Below, one piece after another: positions 23,897 through 51,401 of a DNA stretch of 64,000 bases; positions within the stretch are counted from its first letter, which is position 1, and the number at the start of each line of letters is the position of its first letter. The notes below the pieces were generated by a model that saw nothing but the letters and a program-made list of their open reading frames with translations, was not told the origin of the DNA and searched no databases. Origin of the DNA: Demequina aurantiaca (GTDB lineage: Bacteria > Actinomycetota > Actinomycetes > Actinomycetales > Demequinaceae); the NCBI RefSeq assembly GCF_000975135.1, contig NZ_BBRF01000002.1, positions 186,001 through 250,000 on the forward strand, read 5' to 3'. The position numbers and the translations under genes are program-made.

Positions 23897-24237
23897 CCGA
23901 CACCGACTGCTTGTTCTGCCGCATCGTCGCGGGAGAAATTCCTAGTGACAAGGTGGCCGAGACCGACACCGTCCTGGCCTTCCGCGACATCAACCCCGCG
24001 GCACCCGTACACGTCCTGGTGATCCCCAAGACGCACTCACCGAACATCACCGCGCTCGCGGCCACGCATCCAGACTTGATTGCCGACATGGCGGCCGTCG
24101 CCCAGACAGTGGCCGATGACGAATGCGGGGGGCAATACCGCTGGATCTTCAATACCGGACCGGCTGCCGGGCAGTCGGTCTTTCATGTGCACGGCCACGT
24201 CATCGGTGGCAAGGACCTTGGATGGAGCCCCGCGTGA
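23893..24237 (+). CDS. HIT family nucleotide hydrolase
   Basis: A 114-residue HIT protein with the histidine triad His98, His100, His102 in [10 protein letters not shown] and an N-terminal CLFCR zinc-like motif. Family members hydrolyse adenosine 5'-phosphoramidate-type bonds; the cellular substrate here is unknown. It overlaps rsmE upstream and phoH downstream by four bases each, placing it in the same operon. Confidence 0.92.
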
Positions 24238-45174: not shown

Positions 45175-45765
45175 CTACTTCGCGACGTCGTGCACCGGCA
45201 TCAAGTGCAGTTGCACCATGCCGTCCTCAAACTTGAGTACGTCCGTGACGGTCAGTTCGCGCGGGTTGTCCGCCCCGGCGAAGAGTGGGTGGCCGCGACC
45301 CAGCACCGTCGGCATCTGCGTCACGATGATTTGGTCGATTTGATCGGCGTCCAGGGCCTGGCGGATGAGGTTGCCACCGTCGAGGTAGACGTCCTTCTCG
45401 CCGGCCGCGTCGTGCGCCTCCGCAATGAGGTTCTTGATGGGTGCCGATGCGGTCGTCACGGTGGGTGGTGCATCGTCGAGTGGGCGGGAGGTCGCCACGA
45501 TCACGGGAGTGTCACCATACGGCCACTCGTCAAACGTCGAGACAACGTCATACGTGCGCCTGCCCATGAGCAGGCAGCCCACGTCGCGGAAGAAGTCGTC
45601 GTATTGCAGTGCGTCAGCGGGGCGTTCAGCCCAGTTCCCACTGGCGAGTGGCCCGTGGTCCGCTCGCGGCTGCGTGAGCCAGTCAAGTCCATCGTGAACA
45701 TCCGCGATGAAGCCGTCCAGCGAACAGGCAATGTAGACGCGCACGCGTCCGGGAAGGTTGTCCAT
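45175..45765 (-). CDS. Dihydrofolate-reductase-like RibD C-terminal domain protein
   Basis: A 196-residue reductase of the RibD C-terminal/DHFR fold: VYIACSLDGFIAD at the start, CLLMGRRTYD, and DGGNLIRQAL near the end. Such stand-alone proteins are NADPH-dependent; the substrate is unknown. GAGAGGC precedes the ATG at 45765. It is convergent with dusB. Confidence 0.88.
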   Translation of the reverse strand: MDNLPGRVRVYIACSLDGFIADVHDGLDWLTQPRADHGPLASGNWAERPADALQYDDFFRDVGCLLMGRRTYDVVSTFDEWPYGDTPVIVATSRPLDDAPPTVTTASAPIKNLIAEAHDAAGEKDVYLDGGNLIRQALDADQIDQIIVTQMPTVLGRGHPLFAGADNPRELTVTDVLKFEDGMVQLHLMPVHDVAK

Positions 45766-45807
45766 GCCTCTCACGCTACGCCGTCGCGACACACGCGGCC
45801 AACGGAG

Positions 45808-46278
45808 TCAGGAGGGCAGGATCGGTCGGTTTTCGTAGAACGTCTGCAGCACGACCGTGGTGTGGGTATTGACTGATGCGGCGGAGCGGATGTCGCGAAT
45901 GAGTGACTCCAGGTGCCGCGGGGAGGCCACGCGAACGAGCAACATGTAGGCCGAGTCACCAGCGATCGAATGGCAGGCCTCGATCTCGGTGAGGTGCTCA
46001 AGGAGCTCGGGGGCGTTGTCGGGTTGGCCCGGGTCTAGTGGGGTGATCTCGACAAAGGCCGCGAGTGGCTTGCCTACGGATTCAGGGTCGACCAGTGCGC
46101 GATATCCCGTGATGACGCCTCGCGTCTCGAGTTTGCGTAGGCGCGCCTGCACCGCCGATACGGACAGGCCGACAGTGGTTGATAGCTCAGCGAGAGTCGC
46201 GCGGCCATCAAGCGACATCGCGCGAACGATACCTGCGTCGATGTCGTCGTCAAGGTGTGCGGGTGTGTCGTTGGCCAT
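45808..46278 (-). CDS. Lrp/AsnC family regulator
   Basis: A 156-residue regulator with an AsnC-type helix-turn-helix (RATLAELSTTVGLSVSAVQARLRKLE) and a RAM effector-binding domain (ACHSIAGDSAYMLLVRV). The family responds to amino acids and forms dimers to octamers. It is divergent from the DUF6421-like operon, and duplicated operator-like elements lie between them, so it most likely controls that operon and senses an amino acid handled by it (inference). Confidence 0.92.
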   Translation of the reverse strand: MANDTPAHLDDDIDAGIVRAMSLDGRATLAELSTTVGLSVSAVQARLRKLETRGVITGYRALVDPESVGKPLAAFVEITPLDPGQPDNAPELLEHLTEIEACHSIAGDSAYMLLVRVASPRHLESLIRDIRSAASVNTHTTVVLQTFYENRPILPS

Positions 46279-46308
46279 ATCCCGAGGCTACCAGGGGAGC
46301 ATCGTCGT

Positions 46309-46325
46309 GGCAGGAATCTTTCCCG
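46309..46325 (+). promoter_or_regulatory. Candidate Lrp operator, copy 1
   Basis: GGCAGGAATCTTTCCCG, with an inner GGAA...TTCC dyad, sits just upstream of the -35 of the DUF6421-like operon. A copy with two changes follows 31 bases on. Confidence 0.6.
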
Positions 46326-46333
46326 CAAAACAG

Positions 46334-46362
46334 ATGACAGGCAGGAATATCTCCCGTAGGCT
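46334..46362 (+). promoter_or_regulatory. Probable promoter of the DUF6421-like operon with operator copy 2 in the spacer
   Basis: ATGACA (46334-46339) and TAGGCT (46357-46362) are separated by exactly 17 bases, and those 17 bases are the second operator copy, GGCAGGAATATCTCCCG (46340-46356). Start-to-start spacing of the two copies is 31 bases, about three helical turns, so they face the same side of the DNA. Confidence 0.6.
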
Positions 46363-46403
46363 CAGAATACGAGGACGACCCAACGCAGGGACCGGAGGTT
46401 CAC

Positions 46404-47852
46404 ATGTCAATCCACGCACACGCGACGCAGCACATTGTTGGCGAACCCGAGGTTGTCGAAGACGCCTCGCGGGTGGAGACCAGTGACGCATGGTTGAGGC
46501 TCAAGGCCGCCGCCACTGCAATTCAGCTACTTCAGGAGCAGGACGGCTCTATTCCCGCGCACGTTGATGAGGTGGCGGAGGATGCGCACGCCGACGCCCG
46601 CGCGTTGGTCACCGAGGTCATTGCCGCCATTCGCGCGTTGACGCCCGCGTTCCCGCACGACCAGGACTACCTTGTTGAGGTCGTCCAGGATTTTGAGCGG
46701 TGGGCGGACCAGGGCTTCGGCATCCCCGACTTCCTCGACTCGCTTTCGGCCTTCCAGCCGCAGCAGCACCGAGTGGACGGCACCCGTCACCTGGTGGTCT
46801 TTCCGATGTACACCCAAAATGGCTCGCGTGACCGCCACGTCGAGGCGGTGCTGGTGGAGGCCATTTGGCCCGAGTTCATCGCGCAGCTCGAGGCAGGCGA
46901 CTACGGCAACAAGTTATTCGTGTCGCTGCGTTTTCTGGACTACACGCCCGGCTACGACACGAACTCGGCCGTGCTCTTCCCCGAGACCATTGCCATGCGC
47001 GAAATTCCGACCTTCACGTGGGGTGCGATCTTCGAGGACCGCGAGGCCGCACGATACCGACGCGTTGTGCGCGCCGCTGCGGAGATCACCAAACTCGACC
47101 TGCCCGCGGACGCCGCGCGCATGCTTGACGACCAGCAACTGACCGAGAAGACGTTCGTGATGTGGGACATGATTCACGACCGCACCCACATGCGCGGCGA
47201 CCTGCCGTTCGATCCCTTCATGATCAAGCAGCGCATGCCGTACTTCCTCTACTCGCTCGAGGAACTGCGCTGCGACCTCACCGCGTTCCGCGAGAGCGTC
47301 GCGATCGAGAGGCGACTAGGTGCCCGGGCCGACGCGGGTGAGGCACTCGATGCCGTGGAGGCCGAGACGCTCGAACACGCACACCTGGTGCAATACGCCA
47401 TCATCTTCGACCGCATCTTCCGATTCCCCATCACCGGCTCGCGCGTGCGCAACTATGACGGGCTCGGGGGCCAGTTGCTCTTCGCCTGGCTGCACCAGCG
47501 CGGCGTACTGCACTGGACGGACACCGCCTTGTCCCTCGATTGGGAGGACGTCCCCGACGCGGTCATTGCCCTGAGCGACGAGATCAACGACCTGTACTGG
47601 CGCTCCATCGACCGACCCAAGACAGCCCATTGGCTCGCGGCATATGACCTCGTACGTTCGACGCTCACGCCAAACCCCGCCTCCGTATGGGCACGAGCCC
47701 TGCCGGACGAGATCCTCGCGGGCTTGCCCAAGGGGTACACGGACGCGGTGCTGGACGACGAGTTCCCGCTGTCGATGTTCTTCGAAGCGTTAAACAAGAA
47801 GATGAAGGACGTTGTCGAATCGACCGCCGGTATCACCGGTCGCGATTCCTGA
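46404..47852 (+). CDS. DUF6421-like conserved protein of unknown function
   Basis: A 482-residue soluble protein that I recall as the actinobacterial DUF6421 family (not verified). No signal peptide or membrane helix. Predicted mostly helical in the second half. Conserved-looking metal-type motifs are HDRTH (His258, His262) and, after about 24 residues, EELRCD (Glu286, Glu287, Asp291), with EHAHL later. The layout resembles zincin-type HExxH...E sites but has Asp where the catalytic Glu is expected. GGAGG precedes the ATG. It heads an operon with an SDR and a PLP lyase, facing an Lrp regulator. Function unknown. Confidence 0.75.
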   Translation: MSIHAHATQHIVGEPEVVEDASRVETSDAWLRLKAAATAIQLLQEQDGSIPAHVDEVAEDAHADARALVTEVIAAIRALTPAFPHDQDYLVEVVQDFERWADQGFGIPDFLDSLSAFQPQQHRVDGTRHLVVFPMYTQNGSRDRHVEAVLVEAIWPEFIAQLEAGDYGNKLFVSLRFLDYTPGYDTNSAVLFPETIAMREIPTFTWGAIFEDREAARYRRVVRAAAEITKLDLPADAARMLDDQQLTEKTFVMWDMIHDRTHMRGDLPFDPFMIKQRMPYFLYSLEELRCDLTAFRESVAIERRLGARADAGEALDAVEAETLEHAHLVQYAIIFDRIFRFPITGSRVRNYDGLGGQLLFAWLHQRGVLHWTDTALSLDWEDVPDAVIALSDEINDLYWRSIDRPKTAHWLAAYDLVRSTLTPNPASVWARALPDEILAGLPKGYTDAVLDDEFPLSMFFEALNKKMKDVVESTAGITGRDS

Positions 47853-47886
47853 AACCCGTGCGCGCACATCGTGGGAGGCTGAACGC

Positions 47887-48618
47887 ATGAGCGTCGCAGG
47901 CAGGACCGTGGTGATCGGTGGTGCTACCAGCACGTCCGGGGTCGCTGCGGTACGCGAACTTGCTCATGCCGGGGCGCGGGTGATCGCTGTGGGCCGCGAC
48001 CCGGACAAGCTCGATAGTTTGCTGTTCAACGTCACCCGGGCTCGAGGTGAGGGAGATGACGGAGGTGCCGAGAACGTGCGCACCGAGGTCTGCGACCTCA
48101 CTGATGAGGCCTCAGTCGCTCGGCTCGTACAGCGCGTCCACGATGCCGACGGTGCCGTTGACGGGGTCGTGCACCTCGTAGGCGGGTGGCGCGGCGGTGG
48201 CGGCCTTGCCGGCCAGAACGAGGTCGATTTCCGATTCCTCGAGGGGTCATTCACGGCGCTCCGCCACCTCAGTCGCGCCTGTGATTCCGACCTTAAGGCT
48301 TCGGGTGCCGGTCGCCTAGCGGTGGTCTCCTCCACTGCCGTCGCACGCCCGCTTGCCGGGGGTGCGAACTATGCGGCGGTAAAGTCCGCGACCGAGGCGT
48401 GGGCGCGCGCCGTCGCGCAGGGCTACGCGAAGGACGCCCGAGATGCGGCGCGGCCGTTGACTGCAGCCGCCGTGATCTTCCGCGTCACAAGCCTCGCGGG
48501 TCTCGAGGAGGCGCTCGCACGGCGCTTCGTCGACCTTTGGAACGCGCCAGCGACTCGACTCAACGACACGACTCTTGATCTCACCGCTCCTGACAGCTCC
48601 TCGATTGGACAACCATGA
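47887..48618 (+). CDS. SDR family oxidoreductase
   Basis: A 243-residue short-chain dehydrogenase. Catalytic residues are Ser148/149, Tyr162 and Lys166 (NYAAVKSA). The nucleotide motif is atypical, GGATSTSG instead of TGxxxGxG, as also seen in divergent SDRs. GGGAGG precedes the ATG at 47887, and the stop overlaps the aldolase ATG. Within this operon it probably oxidises or reduces the hydroxyl or carbonyl of the substrate shared with the lyase (inference). Confidence 0.85.
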   Translation: MSVAGRTVVIGGATSTSGVAAVRELAHAGARVIAVGRDPDKLDSLLFNVTRARGEGDDGGAENVRTEVCDLTDEASVARLVQRVHDADGAVDGVVHLVGGWRGGGGLAGQNEVDFRFLEGSFTALRHLSRACDSDLKASGAGRLAVVSSTAVARPLAGGANYAAVKSATEAWARAVAQGYAKDARDAARPLTAAAVIFRVTSLAGLEEALARRFVDLWNAPATRLNDTTLDLTAPDSSSIGQP

Positions 48619-49685
48619 CCACCATTCACGACCCCGCCTCACGCGGCTTCGCCTCAGACAACTACTCGGGCATCCACCCGGAGGTCCTTGAGGCGATCGG
48701 CGCGGCCAACGGCGGTCATCAGGGCGCCTATGGAGGTGACGTGTACACGGCCCGCCTCCAGGAAGTCATGGCCGGTCACTTCGGCGAGGGTGTCGAGGCG
48801 TATCCGATGTTTAACGGGACCGGCGCCAACGTCGTGGGACTGCAGTCGATGCTGCCTCGCTGGGGTGCCGTGGTGACGGCAGCTACCGCCCACATTCACG
48901 TCGACGAGGGCGGAGCCCCCGAGCGCGTGGCGGGGATCAAGTTGCTCACGGTCCCCACGGACACCGGAAAGCTCACCCCGGAGCTCATCGATCGCGAGGC
49001 GTGGGGCTGGGGTGACGAGCACCGTGCACAGCCGCTAGTCGTGTCGATCACGCAATCCACCGAACTCGGCACGCTGTACACCGTTGACGAGATCGCCGCC
49101 ATTGCCGATCATGCTCACGGACTGGGAATGCGGGTTCATCTCGACGGCGCGCGCATCTCCAATGCCGCAGCATCGCTCGGTGTGCCGTTGCGTGCGTTCA
49201 CGCGCGACGCGGGGGTCGACGTGCTCAGTTTTGGCGGCACCAAGAACGGGGCGATGCTCGGCGAGGCCATCGTGGTGCTCAACCCGGAGGCATCGGAGGG
49301 CCTGACATACCTCCGCAAATTCGACATGCAGCTGGCGTCGAAGATGCGCTTTGTCTCGGCCCAATTGATCGCACTTCTCGACGGCGACCTGTGGCTGCGC
49401 AACGCCACGCACTCCAACGCGATGGCCCAGCGCCTACGGGCAGGCATCGAGGACGGGCTCGCCGACGGATCAATCCAGGGAGTGGCCTTCACACAGCCGA
49501 CTGAGGCGAACGGCATCTTCGCGACGCTGCCCGACGGGGTAGCGGATCGCTTGCGCAAGGAGTTCGCGTTCTACGACTGGGATGCCGCCCAAAACGAAGT
49601 GCGGTGGATGTGCAGCTTTGATACGTCGGAGGAGGACATCGACGCACTTGTTGCGGCGGTAGCTCGCGAGACCTCCGCGGCCTGA
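48615..49685 (+). CDS. Threonine aldolase/beta-eliminating lyase family PLP enzyme
   Basis: A 356-residue fold-type I PLP enzyme. The cofactor Lys is Lys210 in SFGGTKNGAM, the Asp that contacts the pyridine N is Asp177 in VHLDGAR, and the ring-stacking His is His93. Family members split beta-hydroxy amino acids into glycine and an aldehyde. Substrate is not predictable. Coupled to the SDR by a four-base overlap. Confidence 0.9.
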   Translation: MTTIHDPASRGFASDNYSGIHPEVLEAIGAANGGHQGAYGGDVYTARLQEVMAGHFGEGVEAYPMFNGTGANVVGLQSMLPRWGAVVTAATAHIHVDEGGAPERVAGIKLLTVPTDTGKLTPELIDREAWGWGDEHRAQPLVVSITQSTELGTLYTVDEIAAIADHAHGLGMRVHLDGARISNAAASLGVPLRAFTRDAGVDVLSFGGTKNGAMLGEAIVVLNPEASEGLTYLRKFDMQLASKMRFVSAQLIALLDGDLWLRNATHSNAMAQRLRAGIEDGLADGSIQGVAFTQPTEANGIFATLPDGVADRLRKEFAFYDWDAAQNEVRWMCSFDTSEEDIDALVAAVARETSAA

Positions 49686-49788: not shown

Positions 49789-50565
49789 GTGTCACCCAAA
49801 ATTCTGGTCACCACCGATCAGGGCATCGCACACATACAGCTAGCCAACCCCACAAGGCTCAATGCCATCGACTTCGACGCGGGAGAGCAGTATCGGGACG
49901 CGTGCCTCGCGGCCGTCTCTGCTGAGGATGTTGCCGCGATCGTCATCTCAGCGTCAGGACCTGCGTTCTGCGTGGGAGGCGACCTGCTTGCCATGGCCAG
50001 CGCGGAGGTGTCCGGCTCGCAGGTGACCGACGCAGCACACGTCATCCACGAGGGAATCGCCGCGCTCGTCGGCTCCTCAATTCCAGTGGTCGCCGCGGTG
50101 CGGGGTGCTGTGGCAGGTGGGGGCATCGGATTGATGCTCGCAGCGGATTATGTCGTTGCCGGGCCTGACCTCAGGGTGACCGGCAGCTACTCCGATGTTG
50201 GCCTGACGCCAGACCTGGGTGTCAGCACGTTGCTCACTCGCGCGGTGGGTGAGCGCCGAGCCCTCGAGGTGCTGCTGACCAAGCGGGAGCTCGACGCCCC
50301 GACCGCCCACGAGTGGGGCATGGTTGCGGAGGTGGTGGATGACCCCGAGTCCCGGGCTATGGTGATCGCTGGGCAGTGGGCAGGGGGTGCGAGCCGCGCC
50401 TTCGGTGACGCCAAACGCCTCGTTCACGCGTCGTCTCACCGTACCTTCGTGGACAGCCTTGCCGACGAGGCCCGCAGCATCGGCGTGGCATTCGACAGCG
50501 ACGACGCGCGTCAACGCATTGCGGCATTCGTCGCGGCTAGCGCGGCCCGAGGGGGAAAACGATGA
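49789..50565 (+). CDS. Enoyl-CoA hydratase/isomerase family protein
   Basis: A 258-residue crotonase-fold protein. The oxyanion-hole segments are GPAFCVGGDL and RGAVAGGGIGLMLAADY. Typical catalytic Glu positions are not clearly occupied: the second region reads TGSYSDVGLTPDLG, which points to an isomerase or other crotonase reaction. GAGGAG precedes the GTG. It overlaps the following SDR, so they form a pair. Confidence 0.88.
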   Translation: MSPKILVTTDQGIAHIQLANPTRLNAIDFDAGEQYRDACLAAVSAEDVAAIVISASGPAFCVGGDLLAMASAEVSGSQVTDAAHVIHEGIAALVGSSIPVVAAVRGAVAGGGIGLMLAADYVVAGPDLRVTGSYSDVGLTPDLGVSTLLTRAVGERRALEVLLTKRELDAPTAHEWGMVAEVVDDPESRAMVIAGQWAGGASRAFGDAKRLVHASSHRTFVDSLADEARSIGVAFDSDDARQRIAAFVAASAARGGKR

Positions 50566-51401
50566 GCACACATTCGCTGTCCGGCAAGACCGTACTCATC
50601 TCCGGGGGCAGCCGCGGCATCGGGCTTGCCATCGCACTCAGGGCCGCGCAGGACGGCGCCAACGTTGCTTTGCTCGCGAAGACCGACAAGCCTCACCCGC
50701 GACTTGAGGGCACGGTTCATAGCGCGGCCGATGCGGTGAAGGCAGGCGGAGGCGAGCCGCTGGCGATCGTGGGTGACGTACGCAACGACGCAGACATTGC
50801 GCGTGCCGTCGACCAGACCGTCGCGACCTTTGGCGGCATCGACATCGTGGTCAACAACGCCAGCGTCATCGACCTGTCGCCGTCTGCCGACCTCGAGGCA
50901 AAAAAATACGACCTCATGCAGGATGTCAATGTGCGTGGAACGTTCATGCTGTCGCGCGCCGCGGCACCGTTTCTGGCGAAGGCAGAGAATCCGCACATTC
51001 TGTCGTTGTCGCCGCCCCTCAATCCTTCGGCGAAGTGGCTCGGCGCACACACGGCGTACACGCTCGCGAAGTTCGGCATGACGATGGTGACGGTAGGGAT
51101 GGCGGCGGAGTTCGAGTCGCAAGGGATCGCCGCAAATACGCTGTGGCCCCGCACGACCATCGCTACCGCTGCCGTACAGAATCTGCTCGGTGGTGACAAG
51201 ATCATGCGGGCCAGCCGCACTCCAGAGATTTATGCGGATGCCGCATACCTGGTGGTCACCTCTGGGTCGCGTGAAATGACCGGCCAGAGCCTGATCGTGG
51301 AGGACGTGCTCGTGGCTGCAGGGGTGAGCGATTTCGCTCACTACGCCGCGAAGCCGGGCACCCCCGACGAGGCACTCTTCCCGGACATCTTCCTGGACTG
51401 A
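50562..51401 (+). CDS. HSDL2-like SDR family oxidoreductase
   Basis: A 279-residue short-chain dehydrogenase with GGSRGIG (15-21), NNAS (98-101), Tyr166 and Lys170, and the LSLSPPLNPSAKW segment characteristic of the hydroxysteroid-dehydrogenase-like 2 group. Mammalian HSDL2 acts on fatty acyl or lipid substrates in peroxisomes; the bacterial substrate is unknown. Coupling to an enoyl-CoA hydratase suggests acyl-CoA oxidation. Confidence 0.87.
   Translation: MSTHSLSGKTVLISGGSRGIGLAIALRAAQDGANVALLAKTDKPHPRLEGTVHSAADAVKAGGGEPLAIVGDVRNDADIARAVDQTVATFGGIDIVVNNASVIDLSPSADLEAKKYDLMQDVNVRGTFMLSRAAAPFLAKAENPHILSLSPPLNPSAKWLGAHTAYTLAKFGMTMVTVGMAAEFESQGIAANTLWPRTTIATAAVQNLLGGDKIMRASRTPEIYADAAYLVVTSGSREMTGQSLIVEDVLVAAGVSDFAHYAAKPGTPDEALFPDIFLD

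What the first reader, a model, noticed from the sequence alone, without database searches (positions are those of the whole stretch)
45808..49685. Candidate undescribed system: Lrp regulator facing a DUF6421-like/SDR/PLP-lyase operon
Seen: four tightly arranged genes, divergent regulator, one promoter region, coupled SDR and threonine-aldolase-type enzyme, and a large protein without recognised function heading the operon. Known: Lrp-family regulators sense amino acids; the lyase family splits beta-hydroxy amino acids. Inferred: the unit degrades or modifies an amino acid, with the large protein doing an unknown step or acting as a metalloenzyme.
Basis: partly seen in the sequence, partly recalled or inferred. 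Interest (0 to 1): 0.75.

Follow-up and report, generated by a model that had tools for sequence, protein, structure and literature searches.

The report
Iron/pterin amino-acid oxygenase and aldolase operon
A small operon found across many actinobacteria pairs a newly recognised type of iron- and pterin-using amino-acid oxidising enzyme with a helper reductase and a threonine-aldolase-type enzyme, so it probably oxidises an amino acid and then splits it; which amino acid is unknown.

Summary
The four genes are really there (Lrp regulator; DUF6421; SDR; aldolase-type PLP enzyme), in a Demequina-type genome. DUF6421 is no longer functionless: its member PolE is a published Fe/tetrahydropterin-dependent L-Ile desaturase (PMC12614342). 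The window protein keeps the HDxxHx23E metal motif, and its model matches solved PolE structures best. SDR and aldolase are genuine partners: of 78 fetched non-PolE DUF6421 loci, 66 have the SDR directly downstream and 58 the aldolase within 1.5 kb; among 394 class genomes, 98 of 104 with DUF6421 have this SDR. The SDR has GGWxG where ordinary SDRs have NNAG; three solved dihydropteridine reductases share it, so it may recycle the pterin. Best reading: DUF6421 oxidises an amino acid at C-beta, the SDR regenerates tetrahydropterin, and the aldolase cleaves the beta-hydroxy product to glycine plus an aldehyde. The oxygenase class is well supported; SDR role, substrate and product are inferred. 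Against the SDR role: overall similarity is to classical SDRs, and four fetched loci have SDR-aldolase pairs in genomes without a DUF6421 match. Lrp is lineage-restricted (16 of 78), with its own GGAAnnnTTCC operator (14 of 16; 1 of 64 other loci). No paper on the three-gene unit was found.

The parts
45808..46278 (-). Lrp/AsnC-family transcriptional regulator, 156 aa, divergent
   Evidence: Pfam AsnC_trans_reg 7.7e-12 and HTH_AsnC-type 4.5e-11; divergent homologue at 16 of 78 DUF6421 loci
46313..46323 (.). Candidate operator GGAATCTTTCC (dyad GGAAnnnTTCC); a second, weaker copy CAGGAATATCTCCCG lies 31 bases downstream (46342-46356)
   Evidence: GGAAnnnTTCC between Lrp and DUF6421 in 14 of 16 loci with the divergent Lrp and upstream of DUF6421 in 1 of 64 other loci; base shuffles of 15 of the upstream stretches: mean 0.056 with a match, largest 2. 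The match in the window alone is not significant (1 found, 0.5 expected). The 15-base form with 0-1 mismatch occurs only here in the genome, twice; with 2 mismatches 8 more places, against 3 for the backward control
46404..47852 (+). DUF6421 protein, 482 aa: PolE-family Fe(II)/pterin-dependent amino-acid oxygenase/oxidase (predicted). Putative iron ligands H258, H262, E286; D259 of the HDxxH motif
   Evidence: PF19985 E 3.6e-243; H258, H262, E286 in 37 of 37 aligned; Foldseek top six hits are the solved PolE structures, E 6.1e-13 to 1.8e-12, TM 0.74-0.76 on the target
47887..48618 (+). SDR, 243 aa, GGWxG-type (Y162, K166; G99-G100-W101-R102-G103); candidate dihydropteridine reductase
   Evidence: adh_short 1.1e-18; directly downstream of DUF6421 at 66 of 78 loci; motif
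48615..49685 (+). PLP-dependent threonine-aldolase/phenylserine-aldolase-type enzyme, 356 aa; K210 predicted to hold PLP
   Evidence: Beta_elim_lyase 4.9e-44; profile hits L-threonine aldolase 5vye 3e-116 and aldolase 1v72 1.8e-102

Best explanation
The unit is an oxygen-dependent amino-acid pathway. DUF6421 binds Fe(II) through H258, H262 and E286, uses a tetrahydropterin and O2 to make an oxidant that takes hydrogen from the side chain of a free amino acid at C-beta, and leaves a beta-hydroxy-alpha-amino acid (hydroxylation where PolE desaturates). The SDR reduces the quinonoid dihydropterin back to tetrahydropterin with NAD(P)H. The PLP enzyme cleaves the beta-hydroxy amino acid to glycine and an aldehyde. 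In Demequina and some relatives a divergent Lrp-type regulator, binding GGAAnnnTTCC sites in the shared promoter region, controls the operon. Shown by calculation: family membership and fold of DUF6421, its metal motif, the aldolase family, the conserved linkage and co-occurrence, the conserved dyad. Shown by others: Fe/BH4-dependent oxidase activity of PolE, a distant member. Inferred: beta-hydroxylation, pterin recycling by the SDR, retro-aldol cleavage, the substrate (probably hydrophobic), and that the Lrp protein binds the dyad.
For: PolE (DUF6421) needs Fe2+, O2 and BH4, desaturates L-Ile at C3-C4, and is about 2-3 times more active with added dihydropteridine reductase (PMC12614342, sections 16 and 17 read). 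Window protein: PF19985 3.6e-243, HDxxHx23E intact; the equivalents of F140 and Y280, mutated in solved SnPolE entries, are kept in 37 of 37, whereas Y157 is Ile in 35 of 37; fold match to PolE. Linkage: SDR adjacent 66 of 78, aldolase within 1.5 kb 58 of 78, both 50 of 78. Genome level, 394 class genomes: DUF6421 and SDR both in 98, DUF6421 only 6, SDR only 7; DUF6421 and aldolase both in 101, DUF6421 only 3, aldolase only 57. In the 47 genomes of the family, 15 of 16 with DUF6421 have the SDR and 0 of 31 without it. The SDR's GGWxG stands where ordinary SDRs have NNAG; none of 14 other SDRs of this genome that cover the site has GGW, three solved dihydropteridine reductases do; hhalign to them aligns GGW to GGW and YxxxK to YxxxK (probability 98.6, 16% identity); Ser at Tyr-13 is found in only 19 of 35. 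The aldolase profile matches solved L-threonine aldolases over its full length.
Against: By overall similarity the SDR is not nearest to dihydropteridine reductases: none among the 60 best PDB sequence hits shown of 207 or the 50 best structure hits shown. One ordinary SDR of this genome (L174) has GGFGG at the same site, close to the motif, and the window SDR itself has Ser at Tyr-13. Four fetched loci in three genera have adjacent SDR and aldolase genes in genomes with no DUF6421 match, which a pure pterin-recycling role does not explain, and 8 of 78 loci have DUF6421 and aldolase without the SDR. Twelve of 78 loci, 7 of them Demequina, have DUF6421 and SDR with no aldolase nearby; in the window's family the cassette-type aldolase is linked in 3 of 16 DUF6421 genomes. 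No pterin-4a-carbinolamine dehydratase was found in the genome. PolE desaturates rather than hydroxylates, and the PolE-like rows are only 21-22% identical. No substrate evidence exists.
Confidence: 0.45

Rival explanations
1. Same Fe/pterin oxygenase and aldolase, but the SDR acts in the pathway itself: it reduces the aldehyde released by the aldolase, or oxidises/reduces the hydroxy- or keto-amino acid, and pterin is recycled by another cellular reductase.
For: SDR-aldolase pairs occur without DUF6421; the SDR has Tyr and Lys in 35 of 35 and a Ser at Tyr-14 in 32 of 35; its overall similarity is to classical carbonyl/alcohol SDRs.
Against: SDR presence follows DUF6421 closely where the aldolase does not (window's family: 15 of 16 versus 0 of 31; cassette-type aldolase linked in 3 of those 16); GGWxG motif shared with dihydropteridine reductases; 8 of 78 loci have DUF6421 and aldolase without SDR.
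Confidence: 0.35
2. The unit makes a modified amino acid (desaturated or hydroxylated) as an end product or building block; the PLP enzyme runs in the synthetic direction or does a different PLP reaction.
For: The only characterised member works in an antibiotic pathway; the PolE-like copy L112 sits beside a peptide-synthetase piece and a halogenase-like gene; the authors of PMC12614342 propose pathways that make unusual amino acids.
Against: DUF6421 is in 104 of 394 class genomes; in a rough clustering of neighbours at 80 loci no other protein cluster reached more than 11 loci (neighbours were mostly not annotated, so this is weak).
Confidence: 0.15
3. DUF6421 is a metallopeptidase of the dipeptidyl-peptidase III type.
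For: DPP III structures appear as weaker fold matches (best 6eom 8.8e-09).
Against: PolE structures match far better (6.1e-13); the peptidase HExxGH motif is missing; PolE is an oxidase.
Confidence: 0.03

Closest known systems
PolE (DUF6421; Fe/pterin-dependent L-Ile 3,4-desaturase of the polyoxin pathway; PDB 9j2e, 9j2r, 9j33, 9j30, 9j3g)
   Same: Pfam family, fold, HE/DxxHx(21-23)E motif, F140 and Y280 equivalents
   Different: 21-22% identity to PolE-like rows, about 110 residues longer, Ile instead of Tyr at the Y157 position in 35 of 37; stands with SDR and aldolase
Quinonoid dihydropteridine reductase (QDPR; PDB 1hdr, 1dhr, 1ooe, 3orf, 8b5t)
   Same: SDR fold, size, GGWxG after the fourth strand, YxxxK; Ser at Tyr-13 not conserved across the cassette family
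   Different: 16% identity in hhalign, not among the best overall hits shown; a separate group with a long branch in the tree; the window SDR has Ser at Tyr-13
L-threonine aldolase / phenylserine-aldolase type (PDB 5vye, 1v72; that 1v72 is a phenylserine aldolase is recalled)
   Same: Full-length profile match, GGTKNG lysine motif
   Different: Substrate unknown; matches at E 1e-80 occur in 158 of 394 genomes, so the family is wider than the cassette
Aromatic amino-acid hydroxylase systems (bacterial PhhA with PCD and a pterin reductase; recalled)
   Same: Logic: Fe/pterin hydroxylase plus pterin recycling
   Different: PolE is reported to have no sequence or structural homology to earlier Fe/pterin enzymes; no PCD gene found in this genome

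Membership tests
DUF6421 / PolE Fe-pterin oxidase family | Pfam PF19985 above curated cut-off | tested here: met
   807.4 bits against a cut-off of 25
DUF6421 / PolE Fe-pterin oxidase family | HE/DxxHx(21-23)E metal motif | tested here: met
   H258 D259 H262 and E286 (23 residues between); H258, H262, E286 in 37 of 37
DUF6421 / PolE Fe-pterin oxidase family | PolE fold | tested here: met
   Foldseek ranks 1-6 are PolE structures
DUF6421 / PolE Fe-pterin oxidase family | Fe(II), tetrahydropterin and O2 dependent turnover | not testable with these tools
   Shown for PolE
Quinonoid dihydropteridine reductase | GGWxG in place of NNAG | tested here: met
   GG-W-x-G in 34 and GG-Y-x-G in 1 of 35 cassette SDRs; GGWxG in three QDPRs; GGW in 0 of 14 other own SDRs that cover the site, though L174 has GGFGG
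Quinonoid dihydropteridine reductase | No serine at Tyr-13 | tested here: inconclusive
   Ser 19, Ala 13, Gln 2, Thr 1 of 35; the window has Ser
Quinonoid dihydropteridine reductase | Closest overall relatives are QDPRs | tested here: not met
   None among the 60 sequence hits shown of 207 or the 50 structure hits shown
Quinonoid dihydropteridine reductase | Groups with QDPR apart from other SDRs | tested here: inconclusive
   18 cassette SDRs and 3 QDPRs join the tree of 14 own-genome SDRs at one branch (99/96; 97/92 with the motif masked), but the tree is unrooted and the QDPR branch is long
Quinonoid dihydropteridine reductase | Reduces quinonoid dihydropterin | not testable with these tools
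   -
L-threonine aldolase (5vye/1v72 type) | Full-length homology and PLP lysine | tested here: met
   5vye 3e-116 over profile 9-348; K210 in 28 of 28
L-threonine aldolase (5vye/1v72 type) | Retro-aldol activity on beta-hydroxy amino acids | not testable with these tools
   -
Lrp/AsnC regulator | AsnC helix-turn-helix plus ligand-binding domain | tested here: met
   both Pfam models above cut-off

The most novel reading that the evidence does not exclude
A widespread actinobacterial pathway in which an Fe/pterin enzyme unrelated to the aromatic amino-acid hydroxylases, its own SDR-type pterin reductase and a threonine-type aldolase together oxidise and split an ordinary amino acid into glycine and an aldehyde: a complete bacterial tetrahydropterin cycle in general metabolism, with a dihydropteridine reductase recruited separately or from the same stem as QDPR.
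Probability: 0.35. Interest if true: 0.75.

Novelty: new variant of a known kind. Interest (0 to 1): 0.6.

Why it matters
PMC12614342 counts about 10,000 PolE homologues, mostly annotated DUF6421, and describes the activity of PolE alone. This work gives the main body of the family a defined three-gene context, names a likely cofactor-recycling partner and a downstream enzyme that predicts the position of oxidation (C-beta), and so turns an open family into a short in-vitro test. If right, tetrahydropterin is a working redox cofactor in the general metabolism of many actinobacteria, not only in antibiotic pathways.

Tried and rejected
Peptidase reading of DUF6421: rejected on fold rank and motif. 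Short-segment PDB search for the GGW motif: four hits, kelch-type and designed proteins, uninformative. Profile and structure searches of the SDR for QDPR: not in the rows shown. The 2-mismatch operator-like site at window 23930-23944 lies inside a reading frame (24237 end) that looks coding and was dropped; the other seven 2-mismatch sites were not looked at. Downstream ECH and second SDR: in that place in only one other of 80 loci. Genes between SDR and aldolase at some loci (read from reading frames only) gave no substrate hint. Pterin-4a-carbinolamine dehydratase as a partner: not found in the genome. Literature searches for the unit: 'DUF6421', PolE/pterin/polyoxin, threonine aldolase/pterin/hydroxylase/actinobacteria/non-heme, 'polyoximic acid', aldolase/beta-hydroxy/retro-aldol set, pterin-dependent/DUF/desaturase set. 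Only PMC12614342 holds the word DUF6421; of the other papers I saw listings and starts of abstracts only. The library is open-licence PMC, and no paper for the SnPolE structures (9j2e and others) was found in it. Two searches for the role of the GGW tryptophan in dihydropteridine reductase gave nothing used; that this Trp contacts pterin in the rat enzyme, and that rat QDPR has Ala at the Ser position, is recalled.

Limits of the counts: the 80 regions come from 77 of the 148 genomes with a DUF6421 hit, chosen by me for spread; two (L112, L113, PolE-like) are left out of the 78. Alignments A1, A2 and A3 hold 35, 28 and 37 rows, where 68 SDR, 60 aldolase and 79 DUF6421 proteins had been extracted. 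Genome-level searches scored only the best candidates per genome (7, 5, up to 60) and the cut-offs (1e-40, 1e-80) are mine. Related genomes are not independent, so the Fisher p-values should not be taken at face value. The shuffles keep base content only.
Full report
WHAT IS THERE. The window lies in a Demequina-type genome: the nearest named relative of the DUF6421 protein is in Demequina oxidasica, 91% identical, and the genome has 2.57 Mb in 6 contigs. Searches confirm the four genes: Lrp/AsnC regulator 45808-46278 (-), DUF6421 46404-47852 (+), SDR 47887-48618 (+), PLP enzyme 48615-49685 (+). SDR and PLP genes overlap by four bases. One DUF6421 match was found in the genome.

THE LARGE PROTEIN. 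It scores 807 bits against PF19985. One paper in the library holds the word DUF6421: PMC12614342, of which I read the abstract, sections 16 and 17 and found passages. [quoted passage not shown] The window protein has H258-D259-R-T-H262 and E286; H258, H262 and E286 are invariant in 37 of 37 aligned members, and D259 is Asp in 35 and Glu in the two PolE-like rows. An AlphaFold model (mean pLDDT 91.3) matches the solved PolE structures first (E 6.1e-13 to 1.8e-12) and DPP III more weakly (8.8e-09 and above). The equivalents of F140 and Y280, mutated in solved PolE entries, are conserved in 37 of 37, while Y157 is Ile in 35 of 37 and Tyr only in the two PolE-like rows (the numbering of locus L112 agrees with that of the solved chain). 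I read this as the same iron/pterin chemistry with a different substrate pocket; that reading is inference.

THE PARTNERS. DUF6421 occurs in 16 of 47 genomes of the family, 62 of 297 of the order sample and 104 of 394 of the class sample, and in none of 14 control genomes. I fetched 80 regions from 77 of the 148 genomes with hits. Leaving out two PolE-like loci, of 78: 66 have the SDR within 600 bases downstream and 58 the aldolase within 1.5 kb. In detail, 50 have both, 12 have the SDR and no aldolase in the stretch, 4 the SDR and a more distant aldolase, 8 the aldolase without the SDR, and 4 neither close by. Some stretches end early (L065, L095, L129), and two aldolases counted are broken (L084, L107). 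Of the 27 named loci, 24 show the SDR downstream of DUF6421 (at L158 1.4 kb away); L160 has only the aldolase, L163 and L164 neither. Genome-wide over 394 genomes: DUF6421 and SDR together 98, DUF6421 only 6, SDR only 7, neither 283; DUF6421 and aldolase together 101, DUF6421 only 3, aldolase only 57, neither 233. Within the family of the window the SDR is in 15 of 16 DUF6421 genomes and 0 of 31 others; in the exception, G035, no SDR follows DUF6421. There the cassette-type aldolase is linked in only 3 of the 16. So the SDR comes and goes with DUF6421, while the aldolase has a wider life.

RESULTS AGAINST. Seven genomes have the SDR without DUF6421. In four fetched loci SDR and aldolase genes stand together (L184, L186, L187 read; L185 from the coordinates), from three genera. 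In L190 the SDR stands without the aldolase beside it; the genomes of L188 and L189 gave no aldolase match, and the L188 SDR reads VGGADG, without the Trp (L189 was not read). The pairs suggest that the SDR can do something with the aldolase without DUF6421.

WHAT THE SDR IS. In 35 of 35 aligned cassette SDRs the fourth strand is followed by GG-aromatic-x-G (Trp in 34, Tyr in 1). Of 14 other SDRs of this genome that cover the site none has GGW; most have NNAG or the like, and one, L174, has GGFGG, which comes close. Three solved dihydropteridine reductases have GGWxG. Profile alignment joins the two families over the full length with GGW on GGW. A tree puts cassette SDRs and QDPRs on one branch against the 14 own SDRs (99/96; 97/92 with the motif masked), but it is unrooted and the QDPR branch is very long, so it only fails to separate them. 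Against: none of the 60 best sequence hits or 50 best structure hits shown is a QDPR, and the window SDR keeps a Ser at Tyr-13. I therefore say it may work like a QDPR, not that it is one.

WHAT THE PLP ENZYME IS. The profile of 28 members matches L-threonine aldolase 5vye (3e-116) and aldolase 1v72 (1.8e-102) over its full length, with the lysine of GGTKNG invariant. The guanitoxin-type GntG model is a weak hit far below its cut-off.

HOW IT MIGHT WORK. PolE makes a C3-C4 double bond in Ile. Hydroxylation at C3 by a relative would give a beta-hydroxy-alpha-amino acid, which is what threonine-type aldolases cleave to glycine and an aldehyde. A reductase that regenerates tetrahydropterin would complete the cycle; added QDPR speeds PolE 2-3 fold. 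Each of these joins is inference.

REGULATION. At 16 of 78 loci an Lrp gene faces DUF6421: 15 by the distance cut, plus L066, whose broken DUF6421 put it outside the cut. The shared region has GGAAnnnTTCC in 14 of these 16; of the 64 other loci (two PolE-like ones included) 1 has it upstream of DUF6421. In the first 15 loci all 13 matches in 195,703 bases lie in that region, and base shuffles of the upstream stretches give 0.056 of 15 on average, at most 2. The one match in the window would not by itself be remarkable (0.5 expected). In this genome the 15-base form with up to one mismatch occurs only here, twice, 31 bases apart. This suggests a dedicated local regulator. At L137 an Lrp-type gene sits in the operon between DUF6421 and the aldolase, where the SDR is missing.

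VERDICT. A real, conserved amino-acid unit built round a recently recognised class of Fe/pterin enzyme. The family function is known in outline; the three-gene pathway was not found in print by the six searches listed under tried and rejected.

Noticed in passing
L066 (G022:C1:1403072-1404407): DUF6421 is broken into three pieces in one Demequina genome while the SDR behind it still gives one unbroken match.
   Followed up: no
L112 (G404:C1:6563105-6575509): A PolE-like DUF6421 copy lies behind a non-ribosomal peptide synthetase piece with methyltransferase domain and a tryptophan-halogenase-like gene, a possible unusual-amino-acid peptide cluster.
   Followed up: partly
L077, L152, L161: Genes that from their reading frames look like kinase, response-regulator or ABC-type genes lie between SDR and aldolase in several genera.
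   Followed up: partly
window 45175-45792 (-): RibD_C-domain gene beside the Lrp gene; of 80 fetched loci it matched only in the window genome and L060.
   Followed up: partly
window 49789-51401 (+): Enoyl-CoA hydratase-like and second SDR genes directly downstream, found in that place only in L060 besides the window genome.
   Followed up: partly
L137 (G448): Lrp-type gene inside the operon between DUF6421 and the aldolase, with no SDR.
   Followed up: no
L138 (G564): Divergent DUF6421 (32% identical to the window's in A3) with transposase genes on both sides, without SDR or aldolase in the stretch.
   Followed up: partly
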